Of a stretch of DNA of 51,022 bases, positions 3,337-51,022 are shown one piece after another (position 1 is the stretch's first letter; every line of letters starts with the position of its first letter). A model generated the notes under the pieces. That model worked only from the letters and a program-made list of their open reading frames with translations. It was not told the origin of the DNA and did not search any database. Source of the stretch: Candidatus Krumholzibacteriota bacterium (GTDB taxonomy: Bacteria > Krumholzibacteriota > Krumholzibacteriia > Krumholzibacteriales > Krumholzibacteriaceae); contig JAFGCX010000015.1 in NCBI GenBank assembly GCA_016932415.1, positions 1-51,022 of the forward strand. Reading direction: 5' to 3'. A program made the translations under genes and the position numbers.

Positions 3337-3373
3337 AATTTCCGTCACGGAGGCATCAGGTCATTTATCAAAG

Positions 3374-3402: not shown

Positions 3403-3436
3403 ACAGTAGACCCGGATCAGTCCGATTGGAGGAAAG

Positions 3437-4357
3437 ATGCTTCGCCGAAAAATTCTTGCAGCAACAGTCATTATTGTCTCCCTGGCCTCGGCCGTGACAG
3501 CGGGAGAACCAGGAACCAGCGGTTTTGTCTTCCTGAGGCTTGGAAATGGAGCCAGGGCAAGCGGCATGGGCGAGGCGTTCACCGCTGTCTGCGATGACGC
3601 GACCAGTATCTACTGGAACCCGGCCGGGATGGCGGCAGTCGAGGGTGTCGAACTCAACGTCACACACTCGGAATGGTTGATGGATATCCGGTTCGAGCAG
3701 GTCTCGGTGGCGAGCGAAGTCTATGGCGGAGTAGCGGGACTGGGATTCACGGGTGTCTACTATGGTGAACTCGACAGGTACGGCGATTCTCCTTCGCTTA
3801 CTCCGGATGGTACTTTCGCTCCTTACGACCTCGCCCTTTCCGCCGGTTATGCCAGGGATATAATACCCAACCTCTCTGCCGGGATAGCGGCGAAACTGAT
3901 ATATGAGAAGATCGACTTCGAATCGGCTACAGGTTATGCCATCGATTTCGGCGTTACACATAGATCGAGGATCGAAGGATTGACTATCGCCGCTTCGATG
4001 CTTAATCTCGGTCCCCAGGCGAAATTTGTGGAAGAAAAATTCTACCCTCCCTTCCAGCTCAGGATCGGGGCTGCCCATCTCTCTGAAAAAGAATGGTTGC
4101 GGGGAAGCCTTGTTCTCGCCGCAGACGCGGTTTTTCCAAATGACAGCGGATCGAAATTCCATACCGGCCTGGAGTATCTTTACCACAACCTGCTCGCGGT
4201 CCGGTTGGGATACAAGAGCGGATACCATGTTCAGGGTGCGTCAATGGGGTGCGGGATCATCTACAGGAATCTGAGGTTCGATTATTCCTACTCGGCGATA
4301 GCCGATGACCTGGGTGATGTTCATCGTTTCTCGATAAATCTCTTTCCTTCGCTTTAG
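3437..4357 (+). CDS. PorV/PorQ-like outer-membrane beta-barrel protein
   Basis: 306 residues with an N-terminal signal peptide (cleavage after about residue 22, VTA-GEP). The mature start carries the family signature GARASGMGEAFTAVCDDATS-type segment followed by YWNPAGMA, typical of PorV/PorQ (UPF0164-like) barrels of the Bacteroidetes/Chlorobi group. Alternating hydrophobic strands run to the C-terminus, which ends in an aromatic-rich strand (FSINLFPSL). PorV proteins are outer-membrane partners of type IX secretion that help release or attach cargo with C-terminal sorting tails. The gene next to it encodes such a cargo. Its exact role here is inferred. Its stop codon overlaps that of the convergent lpxH-like gene. 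Confidence 0.75.
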   Translation: MLRRKILAATVIIVSLASAVTAGEPGTSGFVFLRLGNGARASGMGEAFTAVCDDATSIYWNPAGMAAVEGVELNVTHSEWLMDIRFEQVSVASEVYGGVAGLGFTGVYYGELDRYGDSPSLTPDGTFAPYDLALSAGYARDIIPNLSAGIAAKLIYEKIDFESATGYAIDFGVTHRSRIEGLTIAASMLNLGPQAKFVEEKFYPPFQLRIGAAHLSEKEWLRGSLVLAADAVFPNDSGSKFHTGLEYLYHNLLAVRLGYKSGYHVQGASMGCGIIYRNLRFDYSYSAIADDLGDVHRFSINLFPSL

Positions 4358-27698: not shown

Positions 27699-30600
27699 AT
27701 GAGGAAAGCCTTGGTAATCTTACTAGGCGTTTGCCTCCTTGCTGCGTTCGTCGGTACCGTGTCGGCGCGTGATATCGATAAGAGCGGCAAGCGGATCATG
27801 AGAGCACTCCATGAAAATGAGAACCTTGAAAACATTGATCAGGGTGCAAGAAGTCTCATGACGGCGGCGACCGTAGATTCCTACTGTCTCGCATGGTATG
27901 ATTTTGAGCAGATGAACTGGCAGGGTTGGACATTCCTGGACAACACTGAGCAGATCGAAGTCTTCTTCCATGTAGACGATTTCGCCGGTCTCGGCGGCGG
28001 AGCCTATGGTGCCCTTGTTCCTTTGGAAGGAACCAAATCGATGTGGTGCGGATCCCGCGCATGGGATGACGGCAGATCGTATGCGCCGTTCATCTACCTT
28101 TGCTCGTGGGAAGCAGCCCCGGGCTATGGTAACGGCTGGAACCAGCATCTTACAACGGATGCATTCTTCTTCAACGGCGTCGTTTCGCTGGGATACACCG
28201 CCTACTACGATGTAGAGGGTGGAGATTTCGATTACGTTCTGGTAGAGTATGACGCTGGTGATGACAACTGGATCGAGATCGCTAACTATCAGGGCGCGGC
28301 TGATACCGTTGCTATTGATCAGTTCTCGATCGCGAACTCCAAAACAAAACTTCGCTTCCACATGATCTCTGATGGCGCGTGGTCAGACGCGGACGGCCTC
28401 TGGGATACAGACGGTGCTTTCATCGTTGATGATATCACCGTATCCGATGTCGGCGCTACGATCAACTATGAGAACTGGGAAGGCGAAGCACTCGACCAGA
28501 AATTTGCCGACGGTAATTTCTGGTATGCCAAGGGCGAAGATGCCTTCGGTAGCTTCTGTGGTCTTGGCAACAACCTTCTGGACAAAGACCCCTGTGGCGA
28601 CAACTTCGCGACACAGGTGATCTTCTTCCAGGGTTCATCGTACCCGAGTTCAGATTATCCCGGACTGTTCGATACTCCTTTCTGCACGGGCCCCGGCGGA
28701 ACCGCCGCCCCTTGTCAGGATGAGTCCCTCGTCTCTCCCGTGATAGATTTCACGCTGTACTCGAGTGGCAGGAACAATGTTCAGGATACGGCGATCCCGA
28801 ATGCAAGCGCTTTCGGTGGCCTTGTCTATGAATTCACTGCCTATCGCGATCTTCCTCTTGCCAACCTGATATTCTACACCTGGGGTATCCGCACAGTTGT
28901 TGACGGATGTCCCGGTCAGTGGCTCGATCGTAACTTTGTCTACTACGGTGGCGACAAAGATTACATCCAGGGTGGATGGGATATCAGCGATCTCTATGAG
29001 GGCGACGGAACAGACGGTATCCAGGTCCAGATCGGTGTCGCCGACATGTGCGATGCCTGGTTCGGAAAATATGGAAACTGCGCTGCTCACACACCTTCAC
29101 CATGGCTTGACAATGTCCGCCTGTACCGCTATGAGACCTCAGGTCCGCAGTGGGCATGGCGTGATCTCGACTTCTGGCAGGATAACTTTGCCGGTCCGGA
29201 TGGGACCGGAGTCGCTGTCGAGCGTTGGGTCAGAGTAGATGCAGCGAACGATCTCAGGGATAACGCTGATCCCGTAATCGATCCGGGCGATTCGCTCGTA
29301 GTCGATTGTTCTTCGCCGATCGCGGGCGGCCTCCGCACCAACGATTTCGGTGGAGATATCGGTGTGAAAGAGGAAGTCTACTGCTATGTCAAGGTGACAT
29401 ACGAAGGCCCCGCGCCTTTGAAGACAAGCCCTCTTCTGGGTTCTTCACTCGAGGATCCCAGCCTGGGTAATCCCGGAACCGACAAGTATGGCTGGTATAT
29501 CTCGAACGACGGCCTCTGGAACAAGTTCCTCTGCCCGACAGCCCGTACGGCTGCAGGCAACGAGGCTGATGGCAAGTACATGCTCGACCTTAACGACTCT
29601 CTCTTCACGAGAGGGTACAAGATTGAGTATTACTTTGAAGCATGGGATCTCAACAACGAATCTTCGACGTTGCCGAACACTGCTACAGATCCTTACGGTA
29701 ACAGGTTCGAGATCTACTGTCTGCCTACGCTCAATACCGGCATACTCTACGTAGATGATTTCCATGGTCGTGGAACATTCGATGGAACAGTCCAGACCTA
29801 TTTCGATCCCGCATTCGCGGCTGTCATCCCTGGCGGCATCATGCCGGATCGTTATGACACCAATGGACCGTCTTCGCTGGTCTCCAACGGACTGGGAAGC
29901 CGCGCGACCCTCGATTTCATGCTCGATTTCTATGAGAAGGTAGTCTGGGATAGTGGTAACCTGAACTCAGGTACCATTACCGAGGGAACCGATCATAGTG
30001 ACAAGAGCAATGACGCCGACCTTCTCTACAACTGGCTTGAGCAGAAGCCTGATGGCGAAAAAGCCAACCTGTGGGTACTCGGTGACGAGGTAGCCAATGA
30101 TCTGGCAGGATCTGAAGCTCAGATCGCTCTGGATTTCATGGTTACGGCTTGTGGCGTCAACTATCTGTACGACAGTTATTATGACCTTACCGGTGGCCGT
30201 GAGGCCGGCGGTGTCATAACTCCGCTGGTGACTGGTATTGATATCTATGCCGGACTTTCGTACTACGCGTTCGGCGGATGTCCCATCATCAACGCTTTCG
30301 ATGTTATCAGCGCGACTGGTACCGGTGTTGAAACACTGCAGCTGCCTGCGTACGAGTCGACCAACTACTATGTTGGCGTTCGTAACCAGTATACCAACCT
30401 CTTCGGTGGTACAGCCCGCACCTCATGGGTCGGACACAGCTTCATGTATGTACGCAACGGTGACGGCGGAACGCTTGCCAGGAACGAATTCGTCAAGAAG
30501 ACTTGGGAATTCTTCCTGAACGGTGTCTCCGAAGATGTTACCGGCGACACGACACCTTTGACCTACGCGCTGGGTCAGAACTATCCCAACCCGTTCAACC

Positions 30601-30836
30601 CGTCAACGACGATCAAGTTCAGCATTGCTAACAAGGGTCATGTAAGCCTCAAGGTTTACAACGTTGCCGGACAGCTGGTAAGCACGCTTACCAACAAGGT
30701 TTGGGAAGCCGGTTCTCATGATATCGCTTGGGACGGAACGAACGATCTCGGTTCTAGCGTCGCAAGTGGCGTCTACTTCTACAAACTGAAGGCAGACAAC
30801 TATGAGAGCACAAAGAAAATGATCCTTCTCCGCTAA
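27699..30836 (+). CDS. Large secreted protein with C-terminal sorting tail, apparently highly expressed
   Basis: 1045 residues. A signal peptide (1-23, ending VSA) is followed by an acidic, aromatic-rich extracellular region of jelly-roll-like segments. Around residue 685 an ILYVDD segment followed by KVVWDSGNL and WVLGDEVANDL resembles the GATase-like domain often found in FCB-group surface proteins. The last ~90 residues are a FlgD-Ig/Por-secretion tail with NYPNPFNPSTTIKF, VYNVAGQLV, SGVYFYKL and the end KMILLR. Arginine is mostly CGC/CGT here, while neighbouring genes favour AGG/AGA. With the consensus promoter and strong terminator, that points to an abundant protein, perhaps a surface coat component. 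I do not recognise a specific family. The ribosome site is GGGGGG, nine bases before the ATG. Confidence 0.8.
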   Translation: MRKALVILLGVCLLAAFVGTVSARDIDKSGKRIMRALHENENLENIDQGARSLMTAATVDSYCLAWYDFEQMNWQGWTFLDNTEQIEVFFHVDDFAGLGGGAYGALVPLEGTKSMWCGSRAWDDGRSYAPFIYLCSWEAAPGYGNGWNQHLTTDAFFFNGVVSLGYTAYYDVEGGDFDYVLVEYDAGDDNWIEIANYQGAADTVAIDQFSIANSKTKLRFHMISDGAWSDADGLWDTDGAFIVDDITVSDVGATINYENWEGEALDQKFADGNFWYAKGEDAFGSFCGLGNNLLDKDPCGDNFATQVIFFQGSSYPSSDYPGLFDTPFCTGPGGTAAPCQDESLVSPVIDFTLYSSGRNNVQDTAIPNASAFGGLVYEFTAYRDLPLANLIFYTWGIRTVVDGCPGQWLDRNFVYYGGDKDYIQGGWDISDLYEGDGTDGIQVQIGVADMCDAWFGKYGNCAAHTPSPWLDNVRLYRYETSGPQWAWRDLDFWQDNFAGPDGTGVAVERWVRVDAANDLRDNADPVIDPGDSLVVDCSSPIAGGLRTNDFGGDIGVKEEVYCYVKVTYEGPAPLKTSPLLGSSLEDPSLGNPGTDKYGWYISNDGLWNKFLCPTARTAAGNEADGKYMLDLNDSLFTRGYKIEYYFEAWDLNNESSTLPNTATDPYGNRFEIYCLPTLNTGILYVDDFHGRGTFDGTVQTYFDPAFAAVIPGGIMPDRYDTNGPSSLVSNGLGSRATLDFMLDFYEKVVWDSGNLNSGTITEGTDHSDKSNDADLLYNWLEQKPDGEKANLWVLGDEVANDLAGSEAQIALDFMVTACGVNYLYDSYYDLTGGREAGGVITPLVTGIDIYAGLSYYAFGGCPIINAFDVISATGTGVETLQLPAYESTNYYVGVRNQYTNLFGGTARTSWVGHSFMYVRNGDGGTLARNEFVKKTWEFFLNGVSEDVTGDTTPLTYALGQNYPNPFNPSTTIKFSIANKGHVSLKVYNVAGQLVSTLTNKVWEAGSHDIAWDGTNDLGSSVASGVYFYKLKADNYESTKKMILLR

Positions 30837-37804: not shown

Positions 37805-39622
37805 GTGATCTCTGCTGTCGTGGAAGGATGGGTCATTCAGGTGCCTTCTCGATTCAGATTCGGTGTCGCTTTGATTATCCCGCTGCTGCTTTCATATCCA
37901 TGCAGGATCGATGCTTCATATGACCGCCTGGCGATCGATGATCATGATCCGGGAGGCGGCCGGGAGATCCCTTTTACCGCTCCGTTTCCAGGCGGGGATG
38001 AGAATATTCTGAGCGTGTGGGTCTTTTTCTCCGATCATGGCGAAGTGGAATCGGCGGAGGATGAAGATCAGATCTCCGGCCTGGGTCAGGCAGCTGCCAG
38101 AAGGATCAGAAAAAGATCCCGTCTCGAGTCAATCTTATCAGATTACCGGCCTGTCAATACGACATATGTCGGGATCATCCACCGATATGTAATCAGGATC
38201 CGTACCTGCTCAAGATATTTCAACGCGGTGAGCGTAGAGGCAAGAGAATCTGATATAGATCTTCTTTCCGGTCTTTCTTTCGTAAGAAAGATCGAGCCGG
38301 TAAGGACTTTCAGAAGAAAACGGGAAGAGCCTGCATCGAAGATAGAAGCGGGCGTTCAGAGCATGAATGATCGATCTGAGCGATTATCCGAAAAATATGG
38401 ATCGAGTTTCGATCAGTTGATGCTGATCGAATCGCTCGATCTTCTTGAAGCAGGATATAACGGTTCGGGAAGTATAACGGGGAACGATCCGGTGATGATC
38501 TGTATTCTGGACACAGGTTTTGATCTGACCCATGAAGCTTTTTCCAACCTTAACGTCGTCGATCAGTATGATTTTGTCCAGGGAGATACTATCACCTCGG
38601 ACGAGCCGGGTGATTATACTGATCAGGGAAGACACGGGACTGCCGTTCTCGGCACGATAGCGGGATACAGTGAAGGCAATCTGATCGGTCCGGCATGGGG
38701 AGCCGGTTATCTACTCGCCAAGACCGAGATCACCGGAGAAGAGATCACCGTCGAAGAGGACAACTGGATCGCCGGTATTGAATGGGCTGACGTCCTTGGC
38801 GCGGATATTGTCACCAGTTCTCTTGGATATATCGAATGGTATACGACTGATCTGCTTGATGGTGAGACAGCTCTTTGCACAATAGCTGCTGATAAAGCTG
38901 TTTCGCACGGGATCATCGTAGTAAATTCAGCAGGCAATTTCGGATATCTCGGCCCTGTATCGATAATCGCTCCGGCAGACGGTGACAGCGTTATTGCTGT
39001 CGGATCGGTCGACCGGTATGGTGAGATCGCCTGGTCCAGTTCTCATGGTCCGACCGCCGATGGAAGGATAAAGCCTGATCTTGTCGCTCAGGGAGTCGGC
39101 GTGACCTCGGTCTCTTATCAATATACTGATCAATACTACAGCTACAGCGGTACTTCATTCGCCGCGCCGCTGATCGCCGGGCTCTGTGCCCAGCTGCTGG
39201 AACTCCACCCGCAGTGGAGCCCGATCGATGTGAGGGATTCCCTCCTTGCCAGCGCTTCGAGATATGAAGATCCTGATAATATTTACGGATACGGGATACC
39301 GCGGGGATATCTCGCGTCGGGACTGTACGATGGGCCGGTACCGGATTCTGTGACGATCGGTCCGGCCTATCCCAACCCTTTCAACGAAGAGGTGAGGATC
39401 GATCTGTTCCTTCCGGAATGGGAGAGAGTCGATGTGGCAGTGTACAATTTAGCCGGCGCAATAGTCAGAGTCCTCGTTGATGGGGAATATCTCCGGTGGG
39501 AAAGAACGATTGGATGGGACGGGGCAGATAATAACGGGGACCAGGTAGCAAGTGGAATATATTTTATTCACTGCGCCACGGATCACAGGGAAGCGACTCG
39601 CAAAGCAGTAAGGATAAGATAA
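37805..39622 (+). CDS. Secreted subtilisin-like serine protease (S8) with sorting tail
   Basis: 605 residues. The GTG start at 37805 follows the previous stop directly. A GTG at 37841 has a better GGATGG site and would shorten the protein by 12 residues to a tidier signal peptide. The subtilase domain (about 215-500) has an intact triad: D236 (ILDTGFD), H277 (GRHGTAV) and S451 (SGTSFAAP), with N378 for the oxyanion hole. The preceding ~180 residues look like an inhibitory propeptide. A FlgD-Ig sorting tail (YPNPFNEEV, YNLAGAIV, SGIYFI, end KAVRIR) closes it. It is probably exported to the surface, where it may process other surface proteins. Confidence 0.87.
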   Translation: MISAVVEGWVIQVPSRFRFGVALIIPLLLSYPCRIDASYDRLAIDDHDPGGGREIPFTAPFPGGDENILSVWVFFSDHGEVESAEDEDQISGLGQAAARRIRKRSRLESILSDYRPVNTTYVGIIHRYVIRIRTCSRYFNAVSVEARESDIDLLSGLSFVRKIEPVRTFRRKREEPASKIEAGVQSMNDRSERLSEKYGSSFDQLMLIESLDLLEAGYNGSGSITGNDPVMICILDTGFDLTHEAFSNLNVVDQYDFVQGDTITSDEPGDYTDQGRHGTAVLGTIAGYSEGNLIGPAWGAGYLLAKTEITGEEITVEEDNWIAGIEWADVLGADIVTSSLGYIEWYTTDLLDGETALCTIAADKAVSHGIIVVNSAGNFGYLGPVSIIAPADGDSVIAVGSVDRYGEIAWSSSHGPTADGRIKPDLVAQGVGVTSVSYQYTDQYYSYSGTSFAAPLIAGLCAQLLELHPQWSPIDVRDSLLASASRYEDPDNIYGYGIPRGYLASGLYDGPVPDSVTIGPAYPNPFNEEVRIDLFLPEWERVDVAVYNLAGAIVRVLVDGEYLRWERTIGWDGADNNGDQVASGIYFIHCATDHREATRKAVRIR

Positions 39623-39680: not shown

Positions 39681-39750
39681 TTACAAAAGATACCGTTTTA
39701 TGCCGATATGGTAGTAACGTATTGTTTAATCAATGGATAGGAGGATACTG

Positions 39751-42495
39751 GTGGGTAGACAGCGCGTATACTTCTTCGGGGCCGGTAATTCGGATGGAAA
39801 TTCGGAAATGAAGGACCTTCTTGGAGGTAAGGGAGCCAATCTTGCTGAAATGGCTTCCTTGGGATTGTCAGTACCATCGGGATTCACCATATCGACAGAA
39901 GTCTGTAATTATTTCTATGATAACGAAGGCAGGTTCCCTGATGGCCTCAGGGAGGAAGTCTCGGAAAAACTGGCTATGGTTGAAAAGGTGATGGGGAGTT
40001 CCTTCGGAGATCCGAAGAACCCACTGCTCTTATCTGTCAGGTCTGGCGCGAGAGTCAGTATGCCCGGGATGATGGATACCGTACTCAATCTCGGGCTCAA
40101 TCCATCGACTGTCGAGGGGCTGGCTGCAAAAAGCGGAAATGATCGATTCGCATATGACAGTTACCGGCGGTTTATTCAGATGTATGGAGATGTAGTACTG
40201 GAGATCAGTCCGGAAACCAAGGAAGATATCGATCCTTTTGAAGAGATACTGACAAGGAAAAAAAAGGAAGCGGGAGTGCGCCAGGACATCGATCTCAACA
40301 CTGACGATCTGAAAGATCTGATAAAAGAGTACAAACTCATGATCAGAAAGAGGTTGAATATCGATTTCCCCGATGATCCGCATGAGCAGTTATGGAAAGC
40401 TATCAGCGCCGTCTTTAATTCGTGGAATAATGAAAGAGCCAAGACATATAGAAAGCTCAATGGCATTCCGCACGAATGGGGAACAGCTGTCAATATCCAG
40501 TCGATGGTCTTCGGAAATCTTGATGACAATTCAGGGACCGGTGTCGCTTTCACCAGGGACCCGGCAACAGGGAAAAATATCTTTTATGGCGAATACCTGA
40601 TAAAAGCGCAGGGAGAGGATGTCGTCGCCGGCATAAGGACACCTCAACCGATAAACATACTGCAGAAGGGGGAAAGAGACCTTCCATCGCTGGAGGAAGA
40701 AATGCCGGAGATCTACAAGGAACTGGCAGGCGTACGGGATAGGCTCGAAAAACACTATTCCGATATGCAGGATCTGGAGTTTACTATTCAGAACGGAAGA
40801 TTATGGATACTTCAGACCAGGGCCGGCAAGAGAACAGGTTTCGCGGCGATCAGGATCGCTGTCGACATGGTGAAAGAGGGGATGATCTCGAAGGAAGAAG
40901 CGATCATGCGGATCGACCCTGATCAGATGAACCAGTTCCTGAGGCCTGTCTTCGACCTGTCCCAGAAAAAGAAAGCTGTCGAGGAAGGAAAGCTTCTCGC
41001 CAGGGGAATCAATGCCGGTCCGGGCGCCGCGACGGGGAAAATCGTCTTCCATGCCGATGACGCTGAAGAACTGGCTGCAAAGGGGGAAGAAGTCATCCTT
41101 GTCAGGATTGAGACCAGCCCCGAAGATATCCGCGGTATGAGCGCGGCTTCAGGGATACTGACATCAGCCGGAGGAGCTACGTCCCACGCGGCCCTTGTGG
41201 CAAGACAGATGGGGAAGGTGTGTGTCGTGGGCGCTAACGACCTTGATATCAATTACAGGGACAGGATAATAAAGGCTGGTAATATAACTGTACGTGAAGG
41301 CGATCATATATCGATTGATGGGAACACCGGTGAAGTATTCACCGGGGCCATCGCGACAAATCCATCGGAAGTCCTGCAGGTCCTTATCGAAGAAAAACTG
41401 GACGGGAAGGAGTCGGAGATATATCGATATTACGATGAGCTTATATCCTGGGCCAATGATATCCGGACTCTCGGGGTAAGGGCTAACGCCGACAGGCCAG
41501 GCCAGGCCTCGACCGCCATTTCATTCGGGGCGGGCGGGATCGGTCTTTGTCGGACAGAACATATGTTTTTCGAAGATGACAGGATCGACAGTGTGAGAGA
41601 GATGATACTGGCATCGGACAGTGAAGGTCGAAACAGAGCACTTGATAAACTCCTGCCGATGCAGAGAGAGGATTTTAAAGGAATATTCAAGGCAATGAAT
41701 GGCCTGCCCGTGACGATACGGACCCTGGATCCTCCGCTTCATGAATTCCTTCCTCACGAAGACAGTGAGATAGCCGAACTTGCAGGAATGATGAATATCT
41801 CTATAGAAGAACTGAAAAGAAAGATCGATTCCCTGAAAGAGACGAACCCAATGCTGGGCCACAGAGGATGCAGGCTTGGAATAGTCTATCCCGAGATCAC
41901 CGAGATGCAGGTAAGGGCTATTTTCGAAGCAGCATGCGCTCTTGCCGCCAGTGGAATGGATCCTCGACCTGAGATAATGATACCACTGACAGGGACGGCT
42001 AAAGAATTTACTCTTCAGGAAGAGATAGTGAGGCTGGTAGCTGATGAAGTACAGGCCGAGACGGGCCAGCGGGTAGATTTCCTTGTCGGAACGATGATCG
42101 AGATCCCCAGAGCCGCATTGACTGCGGAAAGGATAGCGGAAGCAGCCGAGTTCTTTTCATTCGGAACAAATGATCTTACTCAGACGACTTTCGGACTGAG
42201 CCGCGATGATGCCGGTAAGTTCCTTGGCGATTATCTTCAAAAAGGGATCTGGCCAAGCGATCCATTCCAGAAACTTGACCAGGAAGGAGTCGGCCAGCTG
42301 ATTAAGATCGCTGTGGAAAAAGGAAGGAGTGTCAAGTCTGATCTGAAGATCGGTATATGCGGAGAGCATGGTGGCGAACCTTCATCGATCGGTTTCTGCA
42401 GGAAAAACGGATTTAATTACGTAAGTTGCTCTCCGTTCAGAGTGCCTGTTGCTATTCTGGCAGCAGCCCAGGCAGAATTAAATGAACGGAAATAG
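39751..42495 (+). CDS. ppdK: Pyruvate, phosphate dikinase
   Basis: I choose the GTG at 39751 with AGGAGG seven bases upstream over the ATG at 39733, which has no site. That gives 914 residues. It interconverts pyruvate, ATP and phosphate with PEP, AMP and pyrophosphate. Three domains are clear: the ATP-grasp N-terminus ([20 protein letters not shown], then [20 protein letters not shown]), the swivelling phosphohistidine domain with H479 in [19 protein letters not shown], and the C-terminal TIM barrel with [16 protein letters not shown] and the active-site C870 in GICGEHGG. The presence of PPDK suggests pyrophosphate-linked glycolysis or gluconeogenesis. The CDP-alcohol transferase gene follows 11 bases later. 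Confidence 0.96.
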
Positions 42496-42506
42496 AATTT
42501 TGGATC

Positions 42507-43301
42507 ATGGATGACAATAATAATTACATATCCTCTTTGAGGATCTCAATATTGAAATTTGCCGTCTGGATCCTTTGCGTTCTCTTCGCGGGGTCGCTTA
42601 TTCTGTTCATCCAGTATGACAGAACGCTGGGAAGGGATATCTTCTCCTATTCGATCCCTCCATTCGTGGCGGTCACGATCTTTGCGCTGTGGAGGACAGG
42701 GCTCTTCAGGAAACCTGACGGATCACCGGTGACTGCTTTTCAGGCGCCCAATATCCTTACCTCTATCCGCCTGTTGCTTGTCGCTCCGGTAATAGTCCTT
42801 TTCAGCCATGGTCTGGCCGGGCCGGCCACGATAATGTATATTCTGATCCTTCTGTCTGATGTGGCTGATGGAGCAATAGCGAGGAGATTCAGGCAGGAGA
42901 CAGCCTTTGGCCTGATGCTCGATCCTTTTGCCGATGTCGCGTCGACAGTAGCTGTCTTTTCGTGGTTATTGATCAAGGGGCTTGTTCCGCAGTGGCTTTT
43001 TATCATCCTTATGGTAAGGTACGCTGAGTTTTTCGTTGGATTGCTAATCCTGACGCTGATCGGCAGGCCACCAAGGTTGAGAGCGACAAAGCCAGGCAAG
43101 ATGGCAGGTTGTATACAGGGCGTGGGAGTCCTTGTAATCCTTCTGCAGAACGTGTTGTCATATAATATTCCCGTTAAAAACATAGAGTCGTTCACCTTTA
43201 CAATTCTTGCGGCAGCCCTGGTAATCGTAATAATATCGCAGACAAGGATCGGACTTGAAGCGATCAGAAATAATACCGGTGCCGAAAGAGGAGGTATCTG
43301 A
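42507..43301 (+). CDS. CDP-alcohol phosphatidyltransferase
   Basis: 264 residues with at least six hydrophobic segments. The catalytic signature D-x2-DG-x2-AR-x8-G-x3-D-x3-D is complete in DVADGAIARRFRQETAFG followed by LMLDPFAD (about residues 113-138). It transfers a phosphatidyl group from CDP-diacylglycerol to an alcohol at the inner membrane. PgsA (glycerol phosphate) is the likeliest type, but the substrate cannot be read from the motif. The N-terminal extension of about 75 residues with two membrane helices is longer than in PgsA. It ends directly against the DUF4388 gene. Confidence 0.8.
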   Translation: MDDNNNYISSLRISILKFAVWILCVLFAGSLILFIQYDRTLGRDIFSYSIPPFVAVTIFALWRTGLFRKPDGSPVTAFQAPNILTSIRLLLVAPVIVLFSHGLAGPATIMYILILLSDVADGAIARRFRQETAFGLMLDPFADVASTVAVFSWLLIKGLVPQWLFIILMVRYAEFFVGLLILTLIGRPPRLRATKPGKMAGCIQGVGVLVILLQNVLSYNIPVKNIESFTFTILAAALVIVIISQTRIGLEAIRNNTGAERGGI

Positions 43302-43796
43302 ATGGATTTTGGTGGAGATCTGTCGGTTCTTGATCCGTCGATGGTTTTCCAGGTAGCCTCTGTCTGCGGCCTCACCGGAAAATTAAAACTGATCACTATC
43401 GAGAATGTAGCGAGTTTTTTTATCAAGGATGGTGAACTGATCTATGCTACCATCGATACTAGGAAGAAAAAGCTCGGGCAGTTTCTCATAGAAAAGGGAT
43501 ATATTGATCAGGTCAAACTTGACGAGGCGCTCGATGAGTATAAACACGGAAAAGGTATGGAGAGGATCGGGAATATTCTCATCAGACATGGGTATCTTGA
43601 TTTTGAATCACTTCAGAATGCCATGCAGGAACAGATGAAAGAAGTCGTGTACGAGGTTTTGACCTGGAAAACAGGACAGTTTGTATTCTTCAACAAGGTG
43701 ACCCCTGAACATGAAGATATATTTCTGGATATCAAAATGGATTATCTGATCCTTGAAGGGTTGAAGAGGATAGACGAAGCTGACAGGCCCGGTTAG
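43302..43796 (+). CDS. DUF4388 (PATAN-like) domain protein
   Basis: 164 residues, cytosolic. The N-terminal ~60 residues (LDPSMVFQVASVCGLTGKL...FFIKDGELIYATI) match the DUF4388/PATAN fold found in gliding, motility and signalling proteins of many phyla. The centre (about 62-110, LGQFLIEKGYIDQVKLDEAL, then RIGNILIRHGYLDFESL) resembles the N-terminal repeats of GspE/PilB-type proteins. The tail again is DUF4388-like (WKTGQFVFF). It probably mediates protein contacts in a regulatory or surface-machinery context. The start abuts the previous stop and the next gene begins two bases later. Confidence 0.7.
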   Translation: MDFGGDLSVLDPSMVFQVASVCGLTGKLKLITIENVASFFIKDGELIYATIDTRKKKLGQFLIEKGYIDQVKLDEALDEYKHGKGMERIGNILIRHGYLDFESLQNAMQEQMKEVVYEVLTWKTGQFVFFNKVTPEHEDIFLDIKMDYLILEGLKRIDEADRPG

Positions 43797-43798: not shown

Positions 43799-44719
43799 AT
43801 GACAAACCAGATAAAATCTCTCTCATCCGTAATATTCCTTGTTCTGTCAATTACTGCCGTGGATATCGCCGTATTTCCAGTAAGAGCGGAAGCATATCCG
43901 CGGAACGATATATTCTCGGGTGTCAGGAACAGTACCCGGGCAAGAGCGATGAGTTTTTCATATCTTTCCCTTGCTGATGACGCCACAGCTCTTTTTTACA
44001 ACGCTGCCGGATTATCCACCATAGATGAAAGGAGTGTATATCTTGATTTCGGAGAGGGTGGAGATGTATCACGTGACATAAGGGGGGCTTTCGTCTTACC
44101 ATTTGAAAATATGGCTTTGGGGGCGGGCGTGTACAGGAGAGACTTCGATACATCGGGTAATGAAAAGGTCTTCATCCTTGGAGCTGCTTACAGGCTAGCC
44201 CAGGGCGCGGAAGGTTCTTTTCTTTCCTTCGGAATAAGTCTAAGGATGAACTCTCTTTCTTCAGATGATTCGGGCGGGTGCGACATCTGTCCATTCGACG
44301 ATATGGATACAGGTATCAGTGGTGACGCGGGAGTGATGATAAGGCCTTTACCGATGGTATCGATAGCCTACGTGATGGAGAATGTCCACGAGAGAGAGTA
44401 CGATAATGGAACAGAAAAAACAAAGTATGAAAGAGAATCGAGATGGGGGATCTCGCTGTTATGGAAAGATTTCCTCGTTATGTCATGGGAAAAAGAGATC
44501 AGTTCAGGGTCAGATCACGACCATTTCGGATTACTCTTCGATTCATCGGTACCTCTCGAGATGATTGCCGGTTTCCACAAGGAAAAAGTCACAGGAGGCC
44601 TCCGATGGACAGGGAGCAGGTTTAATCTGGGATTATCCTTCAGCCCGCTTGACGATTCCCGACTGTATACTTCGGTCGCGATTGAATATTTTATCGATAA
44701 AAGAAACAGAGAGAACTAA
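43799..44719 (+). CDS. PorV/UPF0164-like outer-membrane protein
   Basis: 306 residues with a signal peptide (about 1-31, ending in AEA). The family-like opening RARAMSFSYLSLADDATALFYNAAGLST near residues 46-73 matches PorV-type barrels (GARAxGMG...ADDATAxxWNPAGL), with weaker similarity further on. It has an even strand pattern and a final aromatic strand (VAIEYFI). It is a distant paralogue of the protein at 3437. It could be an outer-membrane pore or a partner for the surface proteins encoded downstream. Translation is likely coupled at both ends: two bases to DUF4388 and zero to the next gene. Confidence 0.6.
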   Translation: MTNQIKSLSSVIFLVLSITAVDIAVFPVRAEAYPRNDIFSGVRNSTRARAMSFSYLSLADDATALFYNAAGLSTIDERSVYLDFGEGGDVSRDIRGAFVLPFENMALGAGVYRRDFDTSGNEKVFILGAAYRLAQGAEGSFLSFGISLRMNSLSSDDSGGCDICPFDDMDTGISGDAGVMIRPLPMVSIAYVMENVHEREYDNGTEKTKYERESRWGISLLWKDFLVMSWEKEISSGSDHDHFGLLFDSSVPLEMIAGFHKEKVTGGLRWTGSRFNLGLSFSPLDDSRLYTSVAIEYFIDKRNREN

Positions 44720-46255
44720 GTGGGAAAAAAGTGTTTGAAATCCGCTATCGTACTGCTCGCTCTTTTCTGCCCGATATTTATTTCAGAAATATTGTATGGT
44801 GTCACGACTGGTGAGTCAGTATCAGATTCCACCGCTGACTTTCATTGCGCTGCTGTTTATACAAACAGGATAATGCTGATGAAGGAATCTGATCCCTATC
44901 CATGGAATGATCCTGAGAACGAATCGCATTTAAACGACAGGTTATCCCTGCTTTTTCAGTTCACCCGATTCAGAGACGTGAGATTCTTTCTGAAGGGAGC
45001 ATCGGGTGTAAGGGATGAAAGGACTGGAAAACACAGGAACCGTCTTCTCCTGGAGCAGGGTGATATCAGATACCGATTGGCTGGAGAAGGGCTGGGCGTC
45101 AGATTGTTTATGAGGGAAAGGATCTTCAGGACAAGGAACAGGGAACTGAATCTTATCTCTGATGATATTCCTGAAATATCCGGTAAAGGGCAGGGTATCG
45201 CTCTCGACGCGAAAGCCTGGGGGCATCTTTACCTCCGTTTGGGAAGCGCCGATTTTTACGAGACATCACAGATCGAGAGAAAAGCGGGGTTACCTCTTTT
45301 CTCGGATGCCGGGGATGAGATGGACTGGATCGAGATCGAGGCCGGTGGGAAAAGATGGCATGCCGGATTTATCCTTGCTGAAAACAGGTCTTCGATAAAA
45401 GGGAACAGATCGATCGCGGGGGTGACGGCAGGAAAAGGAATAGGGACCGCGATGTTGCAGATCGAATTCGTCAGGTCGATTAAAGGAAGAGCACAAGACC
45501 TGTGGAGATTGGGATTGCCTGATATTGATTCGGAGAGGATATCGTTCGGCGAAGTCAGCAGGGGTCTTCCTGATGACATGGCATTCCAGACTGAAGTCAC
45601 TGGTATTGAGAGGCGATTCGAAGGCATCGGAAAGTTGGGTGTAGTTCCATCGTACAGATACAGTGGTAATGATTATAGCTGGGAAAAAGGAGAATTAGCA
45701 CCGGGAACTGTCGAGAGCAATATAACTTCTTGGTGGAAGCATGACGAACTCGCTCTCTCCGTTTTCATGGAAGCCTCCGATCTCTATTCCGGTCCACCCG
45801 GGGAAAGATGCAGGTCGCTATCCACCGTACTGAGGACAGAATTTAAAAAGGGATTCGAGAGCCGGGAAAAGATGATTCTTGCCGAAGGCAGAAAACCTGT
45901 TTTTCTATTTTCATTACTCGATGACCGGTATGGTTCGAGAATGCGTTTTATGACGAGGATCGATGATTATGGGGGGAGAAACGAGTTCTATTTTCTCGCC
46001 GAGGGAGGAATCGACCTGGACAGTTCGTGGTCGATAAGGAGCACGTTATTTCACCATGGGAAAGGTGAAAGTTTTTATAATGCCGAGCTTGAATACAGAC
46101 CTCAGAAGAGATTCCTTTTCCGGGCTGGATTCGGCTCGTTCGATCCCGCATGCGAATCTATATCGATATGGAACGATCCGGTTCCACGTGAGGTGGAAAA
46201 GCAGAGGATGATATCGTTTTACACCAGGATATGGCTGGGGGAGATCATAGATTGA
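44720..46255 (+). CDS. Putative outer-membrane beta-barrel, unknown function
   Basis: 511 residues with a GTG start abutting the previous stop. The signal peptide covers about residues 1-27. The rest has many alternating short amphipathic strands separated by charged turns (DVRFFLKGASGVRD, GIRYRLAGEGLGVRLFM-type patterns), which suggests a 16-18-strand barrel. The N-terminal part (DPENESHLNDRLSLLFQFTR) resembles helix-hairpin or capsule-assembly type barrels, but I recognise no family. Its last bases overlap the TTG start of the CBM48-barrel gene, so the two are translationally coupled and probably form one outer-membrane unit. Confidence 0.6.
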   Translation: MGKKCLKSAIVLLALFCPIFISEILYGVTTGESVSDSTADFHCAAVYTNRIMLMKESDPYPWNDPENESHLNDRLSLLFQFTRFRDVRFFLKGASGVRDERTGKHRNRLLLEQGDIRYRLAGEGLGVRLFMRERIFRTRNRELNLISDDIPEISGKGQGIALDAKAWGHLYLRLGSADFYETSQIERKAGLPLFSDAGDEMDWIEIEAGGKRWHAGFILAENRSSIKGNRSIAGVTAGKGIGTAMLQIEFVRSIKGRAQDLWRLGLPDIDSERISFGEVSRGLPDDMAFQTEVTGIERRFEGIGKLGVVPSYRYSGNDYSWEKGELAPGTVESNITSWWKHDELALSVFMEASDLYSGPPGERCRSLSTVLRTEFKKGFESREKMILAEGRKPVFLFSLLDDRYGSRMRFMTRIDDYGGRNEFYFLAEGGIDLDSSWSIRSTLFHHGKGESFYNAELEYRPQKRFLFRAGFGSFDPACESISIWNDPVPREVEKQRMISFYTRIWLGEIID

Positions 46256-48219
46256 GAAAGTCTTTTTTTGTAATAAAACTGTTTGTCGCGATCCTGTTGA
46301 TCGTTTCTCATGGACCGGTGATTGGAGAAGTATTTCTCGATGAGGAGGAAGTAGTCTTCAGGGTCAGAGCTACGGGGGCTACAAGGGTTTTTCTGGTCGG
46401 CGACTTCAATGAATGGAATCCGACCGTAGACCGGATGATAGCGACCGATGGTCTCTTTGAAATCAGACTCTTTCTTGTCACTGGAAAGTACAGATATATG
46501 TTTATCGTAGATGGTGAATCGATCGATGATCCTGTTTCCCCCGTTTACGATGAAGAAGGAAGGGCATTTTTCATTTTCAGGGAATTCGCCGATCAGTTCG
46601 AAATAGTCTTTTCCGACCTCGGCGGGGAAAATGAGAGGAGGATCAGCGGAGCCCTTCAGTATTCATTTGAAGGTTATCTGTTTGCCAATGAAGAGAGGCA
46701 AGGATCATTTTTCTCTCTTCCTATCTATCAATGTGGAGATAAGAATATCGAAGCTCAAATTGAGCCAGGATTCGAGTTCGATTGGGAAGAGCCCGAAAGG
46801 ATCGATTCCTATTTTCTCCGTGCTTCAGCAAGTTTCAGAACGGAGAGAGGAATGATCGGCGCTTTCAACAGGAGCGCGTCCCTCGATTACGGCGATCCGT
46901 TATCACTCTTTTCAGTATCAGGCCCATTTGACTATTCAGCGGGTCTTTTTACAAGGGGGGTCGAAGCTGAGGGAAAAGGTCCGTTTGGTTTTGACGGCAG
47001 AATATTTTACGCGAGCAGGATCGTAGGTTACGATCAACTCGAAAAGCCGGGATCAATATCATTACCGGTAAGTCCGGAAGATCTCGATGAAATCCAGTAT
47101 CTGCGCAGATCATCGCTTGATTCGGATATTTTCAGCTTCCGTATTGGTTCAGCGATGAGGGGGTTGTCATGCGATTATCTATTCAGATATGATATTGGCC
47201 CTTCTGGAAGGTTCTGGCAGGATCCGGATGACCAATATGCTCTCTTTACCGGTTATGAAAAAATGAGGATCGATGGTTTCCTGGCAGGGTATGTCATAAG
47301 TGATTGGATCGATATTGAAGCGGAGTATCTATCAGGAGTAACTGATCTTGTTTCACAGTACAGGACCGACCTTGACGGGACCGGTCAGATTCAATACCTC
47401 GACAGCAGGAGATGGGAAGAGGGAAAAAGAATCTATCTGGGGATCTCTTTCCACCGCGAGAAATTCGCTACCGATCTGTCTTGGTCCTCGAGCGAGTTAT
47501 CGGGAGACCCGATGCTCAGAGGAGGAAGGCGTAGAGATGAAAGAAACAGATATGCGGCCGATTTGAGACTCAAGGCGGGGGCGTACGACCTTGCTCTGGG
47601 CGCCAGGTCGGAGTCCTTTTCAGAAAATTCATCCGCTGAATATTTCTGGCTGGAAAAATGGAATTTCTGGCTTGATGGTGATGATCTCTCGGTAAGGCGC
47701 CTTCCTTTTCTTGAATCAAGGAACATAATTGAGACTTTCTTCTCCCTTAGCGAATCGGCAGGCGATTCGATGATGGTTGGGTATCAGACAAGAGGTCTGC
47801 TCTCGGTGAATTTTTCCGCGGATCCGGACAGGAACGATCGCAGAGTGACGGAATTTGTCATCAGAAAAGGTCTCAGCCTGGACAGGAATTTCTCGATACA
47901 TTTTGATGCCAGGCATATAATCTATGATGATCAGCGGATCGATCGGCGCGACAATTTCACAGATATCTGGGGAGCGTTATGCTGGAGAGGCGGAAAAGGT
48001 GGATGGATCGCTGTCGGGACTGGTGTATCTCCTTTGTATTTCGATAGATGGAGGTATTCACTTTCTCATTATGGCAGGGAAAGAGCGATTGCCGACAGAG
48101 GTGTCTTCAGGACTGAGAGTTACGAGACGGATATTATGCTTCTTGAGGATCTATATAGAGCTGAAAGGGCGATATCGGGGAACTGGAACATCACGATAGA
48201 AGCTGGTCTGGTTTTTTAA
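46252..48219 (+). CDS. Glycogen-binding (CBM48/AMPK-like) domain fused to a putative outer-membrane barrel
   Basis: 655 residues from the TTG at 46252 (GGGGGAG about nine bases upstream), overlapping the previous stop. The signal peptide ends near residue 24. Residues about 28-110 form an AMPK-beta-type glycogen-binding domain: VVFRVRATGATRVFLVGDFN, then EWNPTVDRM, GLFEIRLFLVTGKYRYMFIV and DGESIDDP. The conserved Trp of NEWNP and the K-Y-x-Y-x-F-x-V-D-G pattern are kept. The remaining ~530 residues have many amphipathic strands and a terminal aromatic-hydrophobic residue (ITIEAGLVF), so a 20-plus-strand barrel is likely. This pairing of domains in a single outer-membrane protein is unusual to me. 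Whether the domain faces the periplasm or the outside is unknown. Confidence 0.7.
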   Translation: MRKSFFVIKLFVAILLIVSHGPVIGEVFLDEEEVVFRVRATGATRVFLVGDFNEWNPTVDRMIATDGLFEIRLFLVTGKYRYMFIVDGESIDDPVSPVYDEEGRAFFIFREFADQFEIVFSDLGGENERRISGALQYSFEGYLFANEERQGSFFSLPIYQCGDKNIEAQIEPGFEFDWEEPERIDSYFLRASASFRTERGMIGAFNRSASLDYGDPLSLFSVSGPFDYSAGLFTRGVEAEGKGPFGFDGRIFYASRIVGYDQLEKPGSISLPVSPEDLDEIQYLRRSSLDSDIFSFRIGSAMRGLSCDYLFRYDIGPSGRFWQDPDDQYALFTGYEKMRIDGFLAGYVISDWIDIEAEYLSGVTDLVSQYRTDLDGTGQIQYLDSRRWEEGKRIYLGISFHREKFATDLSWSSSELSGDPMLRGGRRRDERNRYAADLRLKAGAYDLALGARSESFSENSSAEYFWLEKWNFWLDGDDLSVRRLPFLESRNIIETFFSLSESAGDSMMVGYQTRGLLSVNFSADPDRNDRRVTEFVIRKGLSLDRNFSIHFDARHIIYDDQRIDRRDNFTDIWGALCWRGGKGGWIAVGTGVSPLYFDRWRYSLSHYGRERAIADRGVFRTESYETDIMLLEDLYRAERAISGNWNITIEAGLVF

Positions 48220-48251
48220 GATATTTTTAAGTGATCGTCTTTCAGATATCG

Positions 48252-48280
48252 TTGCAAGCATCGATAAGCTGGGGTATATT
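48252..48280 (+). promoter_or_regulatory. Sigma70-like promoter for the two small CBM48 lipoproteins
   Basis: TTGCAA - 17 bases - TATATT lies in the 114-base gap between the barrel gene and the first small lipoprotein. It suggests that the lipoprotein pair can be expressed independently of the barrel gene. Confidence 0.6.
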
Positions 48281-48333
48281 AACAATATATCATCGATAGA
48301 GGAAATTGTGCTTACTCAGGCGCCGGTTATATC

Positions 48334-48726
48334 ATGAGGGCAAGGGCAGTAAAAAGGATACTTTCAATATTGATTCTGGTGACCACCTGCGTTTCATGCA
48401 CGTCTTTCATTGAGAAGGGGATCGAATCGCCCGTACAGGAGGATGGAAGTGTGATATTCAGGATGAGAAGCCGTTCGGCCAGGACCGTGCAGGTTGCCGG
48501 GGATTGGAACAACTGGGGGGCGGGGGACGCTGAATCAGGGGAAGTCCTGGTCGGATCGATGATATCTGTTGACGATGGATTGTGGGAACTGGCCGTTGAT
48601 CTTCCCCCCGGGAGATATCGGTACAGATTTGTAATAAATGAGAGGCGTTGCATAGTTGATCCGTCGAACCCCCGATTCGCAACGGATCATATGGGAGGAA
48701 AGGCATCTTTATTGATTGTGCCGTAG
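48334..48726 (+). CDS. Small lipoprotein with a glycogen-binding (CBM48-like) domain
   Basis: 130 residues. The signal peptide ends in CVSC (Cys22). The mature protein is one AMPK/CBM48-like domain: VIFRMRSRSARTVQVAGDWN, then NWGAGDA, then GLWELAVDLPPGRYRYRFVI and DPSNPRF. The sugar-contacting Trp of NNW and the R-Y-x-Y-x-F core are present. In known proteins this domain binds alpha-glucans such as glycogen or branched starch. As a lipoprotein it would present that site at the outer membrane. There is no clear ribosome site before the ATG. It is paired two bases upstream of a second such gene. Confidence 0.75.
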   Translation: MRARAVKRILSILILVTTCVSCTSFIEKGIESPVQEDGSVIFRMRSRSARTVQVAGDWNNWGAGDAESGEVLVGSMISVDDGLWELAVDLPPGRYRYRFVINERRCIVDPSNPRFATDHMGGKASLLIVP

Positions 48727-48728
48727 TT

Positions 48729-49139
48729 ATGGATAAAAAAATCGTATTATTAAAGGCCGTCGTATTTCTTTTTTTCGCGGTATCCATTGTCCTTTCGGGA
48801 TGCGCTCCCGGAGCGGGTTTCCGCGGTATGGTCGATCCAGGCGCGGGCCCGGAGATCACTGAAGAAGGTGTCAGGTTTTCCTTTTATTCGACAAAGGTGG
48901 ACAGGGTCTGTATTGCGGGCACATTCAATAACTGGTCGTCGTCGGCTGATCCTCTGTATGACAGGGAAGGTACCGGTCTCTGGACGATCGTATTGCCTCT
49001 CAAGCGGGGCAAATATGAATATAAATTCGTAATAGACGGAGATAAATGGATATCCGATCCAGGTAATAACGCAACCGTTGACGACGGTTTTGGTGGAAAC
49101 AATTCGGTGATCATAATCGGGATAGATCCGGGAGATTGA
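48729..49139 (+). CDS. Second small lipoprotein with a glycogen-binding (CBM48-like) domain
   Basis: 136 residues. The signal peptide ends in LSGC (Cys25). A linker of about 20 residues precedes one CBM48/AMPK-like domain (about 44-132): VRFSFYSTKVDRVCIAGTFN, then NWSSSADP, GLWTIVLPLKRGKYEYKFVI, DGDKWISDPGNN and FGGNNSVI. Conserved Trp residues (NNW, GLW, DKW) and the K-Y-x-Y-x-F-x-I-D-G pattern are intact. It is more typical of the family than its upstream neighbour, and the two are probably an old duplication. Confidence 0.8.
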   Translation: MDKKIVLLKAVVFLFFAVSIVLSGCAPGAGFRGMVDPGAGPEITEEGVRFSFYSTKVDRVCIAGTFNNWSSSADPLYDREGTGLWTIVLPLKRGKYEYKFVIDGDKWISDPGNNATVDDGFGGNNSVIIIGIDPGD

Positions 49140-49560: not shown

Positions 49561-51022
49561 ATGATGTATTATTACGACATGATAAGATCAAGCGGGTTAT
49601 CACGGGCGATACAATGGGATAAACGGATTATTCAGCGTATTGTTACGAGCATCGCCCTTTTATTTTTCTTTCCCGCTTTTCTTTCCGCCGCCCCCGGAAG
49701 CGGGACAGGGACGATCTCTCCCGATTCCGAAGTCACGGCGGGATCAAGCGGCAAATGGACTATAAGTTATACGGCAGCTGAGCCGTTCTCATCAGGTACT
49801 GTCCACCTTTCAATACCGGTCAACTGGTCTCATCCACAGATCTCCAATGGTTCAACTGCCGGTTACGTGACAGTCTCATCTGAAGGAACACTTGAGGGTG
49901 TTCCGGTCGTCATAGATGGCCGGATCATTAAAGTATATGTTGATACTCTCGATACAGGACAGAAGATCGATATAATCTATGGAGATGATTCTGTCTCATC
50001 TTCAGGTAACGCATCAGTCCAGAATCTGGTCGAGAGCGATGTCGAGTTGACCCTTCAATCCGATCCTTCGGGAGGATCGGTGGTTGAGATCGCCGTCTCT
50101 CCGACTATTGACATAGTAGCTGGACCGATCTTCAGGATTGTTTTTACCACTCCGCAGAGATCGTTCAAGGCTGACGGCGAAAGCGCCGTTATGAGGGTAA
50201 GGACGGAGGATCAATACGGCAATGCAAGCACCGTAGCATCGGCTCAGGATATACTTCTCTCCTCGACTTCCGGGACTGGAAGTTTTTCCCATCTCGGTGG
50301 AGGAAACTGGAGCGCGACTTCTTCAGTGACTATTTCCGCGGGTGAAGATACAGTCTCATTCTACTACAGGGATACAAAAGTCAACGAACCGGTGATCACC
50401 GCGTCGGGTTCCGGACAATCATGGACTGACGCTCAGCAACAGGCGATTGTAATTGCTGGAGATCCGGTGCAACTTCTGGCGACCCCGGAAGACTCGACGG
50501 TGACTGCCGGAGAGTATGCCAGGTTCCTTCTCAGGATCACAGATATCCACGACAATCCGACATCAGCCTCGCAGGACCAGACGATAACTCTGATGGCGGG
50601 AAGCGGAAGCAGTTTCTATCTAACCGGTGACCACGGCTCTACCATCAACAGTATCGTCATCCCTTCCGGTGATTCATCCGTGGAAGTTGATTACATGTAT
50701 ACAGTGATGAACGAGACTACAGGTTATCTCCTCGCTTTTTTCGATGGCGATGGTGTCCTTCCCAATCTTGACGCTTTTACGACTCTTGTATATATCCAGC
50801 CGGCAGCACTCGATGCAGCGTCATCGCAACTTTCCGTTGATAAATATTCAGTCACTGCCAACGCGACCGACCAGGTCGTCGTTACTGTGACTGCTACAGA
50901 CGCGTTCGGGAATCCTGTAAGTGGAGGGGCAGTCCTCCTTTCGGCTACCGACACCGGAGGCGGTAACGTGATAACGCAGCCTGTGGGGGTGACCGGTAGC
51001 GACGGAGTGGCGACGGGAAGCA
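49561..51022 (+). CDS. Large surface protein with bacterial Ig-like (invasin Big_1-type) repeats, cut by the window end
   Basis: Open from at least 49561 to the window end (487 codons seen). The start is uncertain: in-frame ATGs at 49429, 49561 and 49579 all lack a clear ribosome site. A hydrophobic signal segment (IVTSIALLFFFPAFLSA) ends near 49687, followed by AAPGSGTGTISPDSEVTAG. Ser/Thr/Gly-rich beta domains follow. The last ~95 residues (SVTANATDQVVVTVTATDAF, then GNPVSGGAVLLSA and GVTGSDGVATGS) are a clear Big_1-like Ig repeat. Two earlier units start at PVQLLATPEDSTVTAGEYAR and near VEIAVSPTIDIVAG. Such proteins are adhesins or stalks. Repeat number and C-terminal anchor lie outside the window. 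Confidence 0.75.
   Translation, partial: MMYYYDMIRSSGLSRAIQWDKRIIQRIVTSIALLFFFPAFLSAAPGSGTGTISPDSEVTAGSSGKWTISYTAAEPFSSGTVHLSIPVNWSHPQISNGSTAGYVTVSSEGTLEGVPVVIDGRIIKVYVDTLDTGQKIDIIYGDDSVSSSGNASVQNLVESDVELTLQSDPSGGSVVEIAVSPTIDIVAGPIFRIVFTTPQRSFKADGESAVMRVRTEDQYGNASTVASAQDILLSSTSGTGSFSHLGGGNWSATSSVTISAGEDTVSFYYRDTKVNEPVITASGSGQSWTDAQQQAIVIAGDPVQLLATPEDSTVTAGEYARFLLRITDIHDNPTSASQDQTITLMAGSGSSFYLTGDHGSTINSIVIPSGDSSVEVDYMYTVMNETTGYLLAFFDGDGVLPNLDAFTTLVYIQPAALDAASSQLSVDKYSVTANATDQVVVTVTATDAFGNPVSGGAVLLSATDTGGGNVITQPVGVTGSDGVATGS

What the first reader, a model, noticed from the sequence alone, without database searches (positions are those of the whole stretch)
46252..49139. Three consecutive glycogen-binding-domain envelope proteins, one fused to an outer-membrane barrel
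An AMPK/CBM48-type domain at the N-terminus of a ~530-residue putative barrel is followed by two lipoproteins that consist of little else than the same domain. The key Trp and Y-x-F positions are kept. Such domains usually sit on cytosolic glycogen enzymes or kinases, not on outer-membrane proteins. No amylase or SusC/D-like gene is adjacent. This may be a non-Sus surface system for binding or importing alpha-glucans, or a domain reused for protein assembly.
Basis: partly seen in the sequence, partly recalled or inferred. Interest (0 to 1): 0.65.

Follow-up and report, generated by a model that had tools for sequence, protein, structure and literature searches.

The report
Starch-binding domains on outer-membrane proteins
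A conserved gene cluster puts starch/glycogen-binding domains on predicted outer-membrane proteins; its sister cluster in related bacteria sits beside a starch-digesting enzyme, so this looks like an enzyme-less branch of an undescribed starch-handling system that is not the textbook 'Sus' system.

Summary
Three consecutive proteins carry CBM48/AMPK glycogen-binding domains above the Pfam cut-offs; the first is fused to a β-rich, signal-peptide-bearing C-terminal region ending in an invariant Phe. The genes form an operon: DUF4388, PorV-like, barrel-like protein 1, CBM48-barrel, two CBM48 lipoproteins. It is conserved in gene order through the organism's order and into other families of its class.

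In other class members, and in some of the same genomes, a paralogous cluster (homologous PorV-like, barrel 1, CBM48-barrel and lipoprotein; hhalign E 2e-29 and 1e-22 for the barrels) lies with a GH13 α-amylase carrying three CBM48 domains: same contig in 17 of 27 cases. The window's copy is an amylase-less branch: its genome has no GH13 and no SusC above cut-off. Its barrel CBM48 lost the second Trp and the Lys that contact glucan. The middle lipoprotein lost Lys and Asn. The last lipoprotein keeps all four in nearly all relatives.

Best reading: an outer-membrane α-glucan-binding complex, non-Sus, in which one lipoprotein binds and the barrel's domain is repurposed. Barrel structure, substrate and transport are unproven.

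The parts
39733..42495 (+). Pyruvate phosphate dikinase-like gene; conserved first gene of the co-directional run, probably not part of the mechanism
   Evidence: synteny in 17 loci; identified from sequence, no family scan run on it
42507..43301 (+). CDP-alcohol phosphatidyltransferase, conserved neighbour
   Evidence: PF01066 E 6.6e-23; 17 loci
43302..43796 (+). DUF4388 protein with an MshE-type c-di-GMP-binding motif; possible regulator
   Evidence: PF14332 E 1.3e-24; NF053729 43.9 bits over cut-off 38; 19 loci
43799..44719 (+). PorV/PorQ-family-like outer-membrane protein (candidate T9SS-type shuttle or anchor)
   Evidence: weak alone (E 0.0032), but 20 of 21 aligned homologues match NF033709 PorV_fam, best 2.1e-17
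44720..46255 (+). Barrel-like protein 1 (c1, 511 aa), no Pfam family
   Evidence: 27 loci; homologous to barrel 1 of the amylase-linked cluster, hhalign 99.5%, E 1.1e-22
46252..48219 (+). CBM48-barrel protein (c2, 655 aa): signal peptide, CBM48, C-terminal barrel-like region
46342..46557 (+). CBM48 domain of c2 (residues ~31-102); second Trp and Lys of the glucan site replaced (S, M)
46642..48216 (+). barrel-like C-terminal region of c2; last residue Phe invariant
48334..48726 (+). CBM48 lipoprotein c0a, site degenerate (Lys and Asn lost); orthologue of the amylase-linked lipoprotein
48729..49139 (+). CBM48 lipoprotein c0b, complete W-K-W-N glucan site
49579..51022 (+). Start of a giant Big_1/Invasin_D3 surface protein (c3), cut by the contig end; 4373 aa with FlgD_ig tail in a relative
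   Evidence: 24 loci

Best explanation
The cluster encodes an outer-membrane alpha-glucan-binding complex of a lineage that has no SusC/D. A PorV-like protein and two barrel-like proteins form the membrane part; lipidated CBM48 proteins attached to the outer membrane bind alpha-glucan. SHOWN by sequence: the domains, the operon, its conservation, and its homology to a paralogous cluster that carries a secreted-type GH13 alpha-amylase with three CBM48 domains. INFERRED: in the amylase-linked cluster the CBM48 proteins hold starch or glycogen at the membrane for the amylase, and the barrels let products through or anchor the enzymes. The window's copy has lost the enzyme; its barrel CBM48 and first lipoprotein no longer have a full sugar site and probably act as protein-contact domains, while the second lipoprotein still binds alpha-glucan. 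It would therefore serve for holding alpha-glucan (self-made or from neighbours), or take up soluble maltodextrins released by others, rather than digest starch itself.
For: CBM48 in all three proteins and CBM48/AMPK-beta fold for c0b. Gene-order conservation across the order and into other families of the class. Paralogous clusters combine a T9SS-CTD protein with Glucodextran_C, PorV-like, barrel 1, CBM48-barrel, CBM48 lipoprotein and GH13 with three CBM48 domains; GH13 on the same contig within about 10 kb in 17 of 27 near-full-length cases. Both barrels are homologous between clusters over full length. The two barrel-protein versions split once on the tree (95/86), and c0a is the sister of the amylase-linked lipoprotein (98/86). 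c0b keeps W100/K126/W133/N150 equivalents in 26/26, 26/26, 25/26 and 26/26; the amylase-linked domains keep all four in 62/62; mutating W100, K126 or W133 reduces glycogen binding in AMPK (PMC2642990). No SusC above cut-off. The genome has GlgA and GH57 enzymes, so alpha-glucan chemistry exists in the cell.
Against: The window's genome (95% complete) has no GH13; of 25 order genomes 15 have none, yet keep the cluster. c2 lost W133 in 23/23 and K126 in 22/23 order members, and c0a lost K126 and N150 in 29/29. CBM48 domains that do not bind starch exist (on CE1 esterases: PMC8040265), and such domains were the top fold matches of c0b. The barrel fold is not verified, no solved relative was found, and lipoprotein orientation is unknown.
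Confidence: 0.5

Rival explanations
1. The window's cluster is a secretion or anchoring platform for the giant Big_1/Invasin_D3 surface protein encoded next to it. The PorV-like protein acts as a T9SS-type shuttle or anchor, the two barrels and the CBM48 domains are structural parts, and sugar binding is vestigial.
For: T9SS SprA in all 58 genomes searched; PorV-family resemblance; the giant protein follows in 24 loci and ends in a FlgD-type tail in a relative. PorP/SprF-like genes are commonly next to their T9SS type B substrates (PMC12618676) and bind them (PMC9143113). c2 and c0a have lost site residues.
Against: c0b keeps the full glucan site in essentially every genome, which a purely structural role does not explain. 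In the known pattern the shuttle lies directly downstream of its substrate, whereas here the giant gene is at the far end after a gap of about 440 bases. The homologous unit sits beside amylases.
Confidence: 0.25
2. The cluster handles a self-made extracellular alpha-glucan (capsule-like): c0b tethers it to the outer membrane, made with GlgA and GH57-type enzymes, with no import or digestion.
For: One GlgA and three GH57 genes, but no GH13, in the genome; intact c0b site; c-di-GMP-type motif in the neighbouring DUF4388 protein.
Against: No polysaccharide export or synthesis gene adjoins the cluster; the GlgA and GH57 genes lie on other contigs and may serve only cytosolic glycogen.
Confidence: 0.12
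3. The domains bind no alpha-glucan at all; they are generic beta-sandwich contact domains and the amylase linkage of the paralogues is coincidental.
For: CBM48 on CE1 esterases shows no starch binding (PMC8040265); weak sites in c2 and c0a.
Against: Perfect retention of W/K/W/N in 62 of 62 amylase-linked domains and near-perfect retention in c0b; recurrent amylase adjacency.
Confidence: 0.13

Closest known systems
Bacteroidota starch utilization system (SusC/D/E/F/G)
   Same: Outer-membrane barrel plus glucan-binding lipoproteins, with (in the paralogous cluster) an alpha-amylase
   Different: No SusC-family protein above cut-off in 30 genomes; barrels of unrelated, unnamed families; CBM48 domains on the barrel and lipoproteins; window copy has no amylase
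AMPK-beta / CBM48 glycogen-binding domain (PF16561, PF02922)
   Same: Sequence and fold; full site in c0b
   Different: Exported and lipidated or fused to a barrel-like region; site degenerate in c2 and c0a
T9SS shuttle/anchor pairs (PorV, PorP/SprF with CTD substrate)
   Same: PorV-like gene in the operon, SprA in the genome; in the amylase-linked clusters a CTD protein lies directly upstream of it
   Different: Operon also has two large barrel-like proteins and CBM48 lipoproteins; in the window no CTD protein is directly upstream
T9SS plug protein (NF052315)
   Same: Weak match of c0b and c2 CBM48 to its C-terminal part (E 0.0017, 0.16)
   Different: Far below cut-off (17.5 and 11 against 100 bits); different size and context

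Membership tests
CBM48 / AMPK glycogen-binding domain | profile match above curated cut-off in all three proteins | tested here: met
CBM48 / AMPK glycogen-binding domain | CBM48 fold | tested here: met
   c0b only: AF2 core block pLDDT 95-98, PDB matches CBM48/AMPK-beta; not predicted for c2 or c0a
CBM48 / AMPK glycogen-binding domain | glucan-contact residues W100, K126, W133, N150 | tested here: inconclusive
   met in c0b; not met in c0a (K126, N150 lost) and c2 (K126, W133 lost in the order; kept in families f3 and f7)
CBM48 / AMPK glycogen-binding domain | binding of alpha-glucan | not testable with these tools
   needs purified protein
Sus-type system | SusC/RagA TonB-dependent barrel | tested here: not met
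   TIGR04056 over cut-off in 0 of 30 genomes; c1 and c2 match no Pfam barrel family
Sus-type system | SusD lipoprotein and amylase adjacent | tested here: not met
   none among the neighbouring genes scanned in the window; amylase present only beside the paralogous clusters
T9SS PorV/PorP shuttle family | family profile match of the 306-aa protein | tested here: inconclusive
   E 0.0032 alone, below cut-off; 20 of 21 homologues match, best 2.1e-17
T9SS PorV/PorP shuttle family | SprA translocon in the genome | tested here: met
   TIGR04189 in G000 and all relatives searched
T9SS PorV/PorP shuttle family | CTD substrate gene directly upstream | tested here: not met
   DUF4388 gene directly upstream in the window; met in amylase-linked clusters
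Outer-membrane beta-barrel | membrane barrel structure of c2 | tested here: inconclusive
   beta-strand pattern and invariant C-terminal Phe; AF2 single-sequence failed

The most novel reading that the evidence does not exclude
A whole bacterial class without SusC/D handles alpha-glucans with a previously undescribed outer-membrane complex (PorV-like + barrel 1 + CBM48-barrel + CBM48 lipoproteins), which exists in two paralogous forms. One is coupled to a triple-CBM48 amylase. The other, in this window, is enzyme-less, with its barrel CBM48 turned into a non-binding contact domain and a dedicated intact binding lipoprotein added.
Probability: 0.42. Interest if true: 0.75.

Novelty: new variant of a known kind. 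Interest (0 to 1): 0.58.

Why it matters
If true, starch/glycogen capture at the outer membrane has evolved without the SusCD machinery in a whole class, using a domain otherwise known from cytosolic glycogen enzymes and AMPK. The two paralogous clusters give a natural experiment: same architecture with and without the amylase, with and without intact sugar sites, so what the barrel and the binding domains do can be tested directly. It also assigns a likely substrate to two large barrel-like families that match no known family.

Tried and rejected
AlphaFold2 of c2 from its single sequence: mean pLDDT 29, not interpreted.

The search for related loci in genome contigs returned 70 CBM48 loci (small proteins, GH13 enzymes), none a CBM48-barrel fusion, but it used exact peptides of the window sequence, so it is a weak negative.

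PDB profile searches with c1, c2 and PorV-like alignments found no barrel.

A Sus assignment was rejected. Direct homology of c1 and c2 within the window's cluster was not detectable (E 0.054), but their amylase-linked versions share an N-terminal stretch (prob 78.6, E 1.7e-5).

The idea that the window cluster is only a decayed amylase cluster was rejected: both forms co-occur in G005, G007 and G014, they form separate sides of the tree, and c0b is intact.

One class genome (G030) appears to be the public record 'bacterium isolate Gpa_5', because the same contig number and coordinates come up. Promoter and terminator scan: no more sites than shuffles.
Full report
1. What is there. The window's last 11 kb hold a tightly packed co-directional run: PPDK-like (39733-42495), CDP-alcohol phosphatidyltransferase (42507-43301), DUF4388 protein (43302-43796), PorV-like protein (43799-44719), a 511-aa barrel-like protein 'c1' (44720-46255), the CBM48-barrel 'c2' (46252-48219, TTG start overlapping the c1 stop), CBM48 lipoproteins 'c0a' (48334-48726) and 'c0b' (48729-49139), then the start of a giant Big_1/Invasin_D3 protein 'c3' (from about 49579) cut by the contig end. 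The contig ends where the window ends. All three CBM48 matches pass Pfam's cut-offs. c0b alone matches AMPK-β chains in the PDB at E 2.5e-7; the c2 alignment matches them at 3.4e-11 in its N-terminal part only. AF2 of c0b gives a confident CBM48 core and Foldseek returns CBM48 and AMPK-β domains.

2. Conservation. c2 was found near full length in almost every genome of the order and in other families of the class. ORF clustering of 30 fetched loci plus the window shows the fixed order [S8 subtilase]-PPDK-CDP transferase-DUF4388-PorV-like-c1-c2-c0a-c0b-c3, also in family f7 of the class, where an extra 380-aa protein with a FlgD-like end precedes the PorV-like gene. Twenty-four of 31 loci show all three CBM48 proteins; most of the others are cut by contig ends.

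3. Binding sites. Residues W100, K126, W133 and N150 of rat AMPK-β1 are the critical sugar contacts (PMC4032982), and mutating W100, K126, W133, L146 or T148 reduces glycogen binding (PMC2642990). Mapped on an alignment: c0b keeps W/K/W/N in 26, 26, 25 and 26 of 26. c2 in the window's order keeps W100 (23/23) but loses K126 (22/23) and W133 (23/23); c2 in class families f3 and f7 keeps W, K and W (6/6). c0a loses K126 and N150 in all 29. The window's own residues are c2 W/M/S/R, c0a W/R/C/A, c0b W/K/W/N. The N150 and L146 columns of c2 are uncertain because its last loop is shorter.

4. The amylase-linked sister cluster. Searching the class with the c2 barrel alone brought out second loci. There, in order: a protein ending in a T9SS-type sorting domain (CHU_C; weak TIGR04131), in some cases with Glucodextran_C (PF09985); a PorV-like protein; a c1-type barrel ending in ..WF; a 670-880-aa CBM48-barrel with one or two CBM48 domains; a CBM48 lipoprotein; and nearby a GH13 enzyme of about 1000-1100 aa with three CBM48 domains. 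Profile comparison: c2 barrel against the sister barrel, prob 99.8, E 2.2e-29 over 462 columns; c1 against sister c1, 99.5, E 1.1e-22 over 428 columns. All 62 CBM48 domains of these loci keep W/K/W/N. Near-full-length sister barrels were found in 27 genomes; in 17 a GH13 match lies on the same contig within about 10 kb (counted; the rest are mostly short contigs). G005, G007 and G014 have both clusters.

5. Relationship. A tree of 41 CBM48-barrel proteins splits the two forms once (95/86), with a long stem (1.31) on the window's order, where the site residues were lost; the root is unknown, and the f3 sequences lie next to the amylase-linked side when the tree is drawn at its midpoint. A tree of single domains (108 columns, weak) places c0a as sister of the amylase-linked lipoprotein (98/86) and the barrel domains on the other side, so barrel and lipoprotein domains had probably diverged before the two clusters did.

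6. Genome context. The window's genome (95.5% complete) has no GH13 match at all; 15 of 25 order genomes have none, and all 15 carry the cluster's barrel. It does have one GlgA and three GH57 genes, so cytosolic glycogen is plausible. SusC is not found above cut-off in 30 genomes, the window's included. T9SS is present: SprA in all 58 genomes, and sorting tails on window proteins 142-3336, 27699-30836 and 37805-39622.

7. Is c2 a barrel? For: signal peptide, alternating-strand windows above shuffled columns (z 3.2; sister barrels 9.3; soluble PPDK 0.4 and subtilase 0.3), C-terminal Phe invariant in 24 of 24. Against: an Ig-repeat control also scores (z 6.2), so the test does not separate barrel from sandwich; no family or PDB relative; AF2 from one sequence failed. 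I treat it as probable, not shown.

8. Mechanism. Most likely an outer-membrane complex whose lipoproteins bind α-glucan and whose barrels provide passage or anchorage. In the sister cluster it works with a CBM48-rich amylase, like Sus in logic but not in parts. In the window's form only c0b keeps a competent site, while the barrel's and c0a's domains are likely contact domains. Steps shown: domains, homology, linkage, residue loss. Steps inferred: membrane topology, complex formation, substrate, transport. The main rival is a platform for the giant c3 protein, using the T9SS shuttle logic known from F. johnsoniae and P. gingivalis (PMC12618676, PMC9143113). CBM48 alone does not prove α-glucan binding (PMC8040265).

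9. Novelty. My full-text searches found no description of CBM48-barrel proteins; the library is incomplete. I rate it a new variant of a known kind: outer-membrane glycan-binding systems.

Noticed in passing
L001:1498-2574 (-) (own genome G000:C27); also L190, L192-L195, L146, L147: ParA-type ATPase with a C-terminal CBM48 domain (AAA_31 E 7e-49, AMPK1_CBM E 2e-13), conserved across the order and in family f7; in G033 it lies next to glycosyltransferase (GT5-like) and GH57 genes. Possibly a partition ATPase that positions glycogen granules.
   Followed up: partly
L002:1504-3219 (-) (own genome G000:C31): Large protein with a C-terminal CBM48 domain (E 2.7e-10) and no other Pfam match in the part held.
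   Followed up: partly
window 142-4357: Protein with FG-GAP-like repeats and a T9SS sorting tail followed directly by a second PorV/UPF0164-like gene: a probable secreted substrate and shuttle pair.
   Followed up: partly
window 37805-39622: S8 subtilase with a T9SS type A sorting domain, conserved as a neighbour upstream of PPDK in 13 loci.
   Followed up: no
window 43302-43796: DUF4388 protein carrying an MshE-type c-di-GMP motif as fixed neighbour of the PorV-like/barrel operon, suggesting c-di-GMP control.
   Followed up: no
own genome G000:C10 313690-333574: A GH57 gene lies about 15 kb upstream of sprA; similar spacing is seen in G001, G007 and G020.
   Followed up: no
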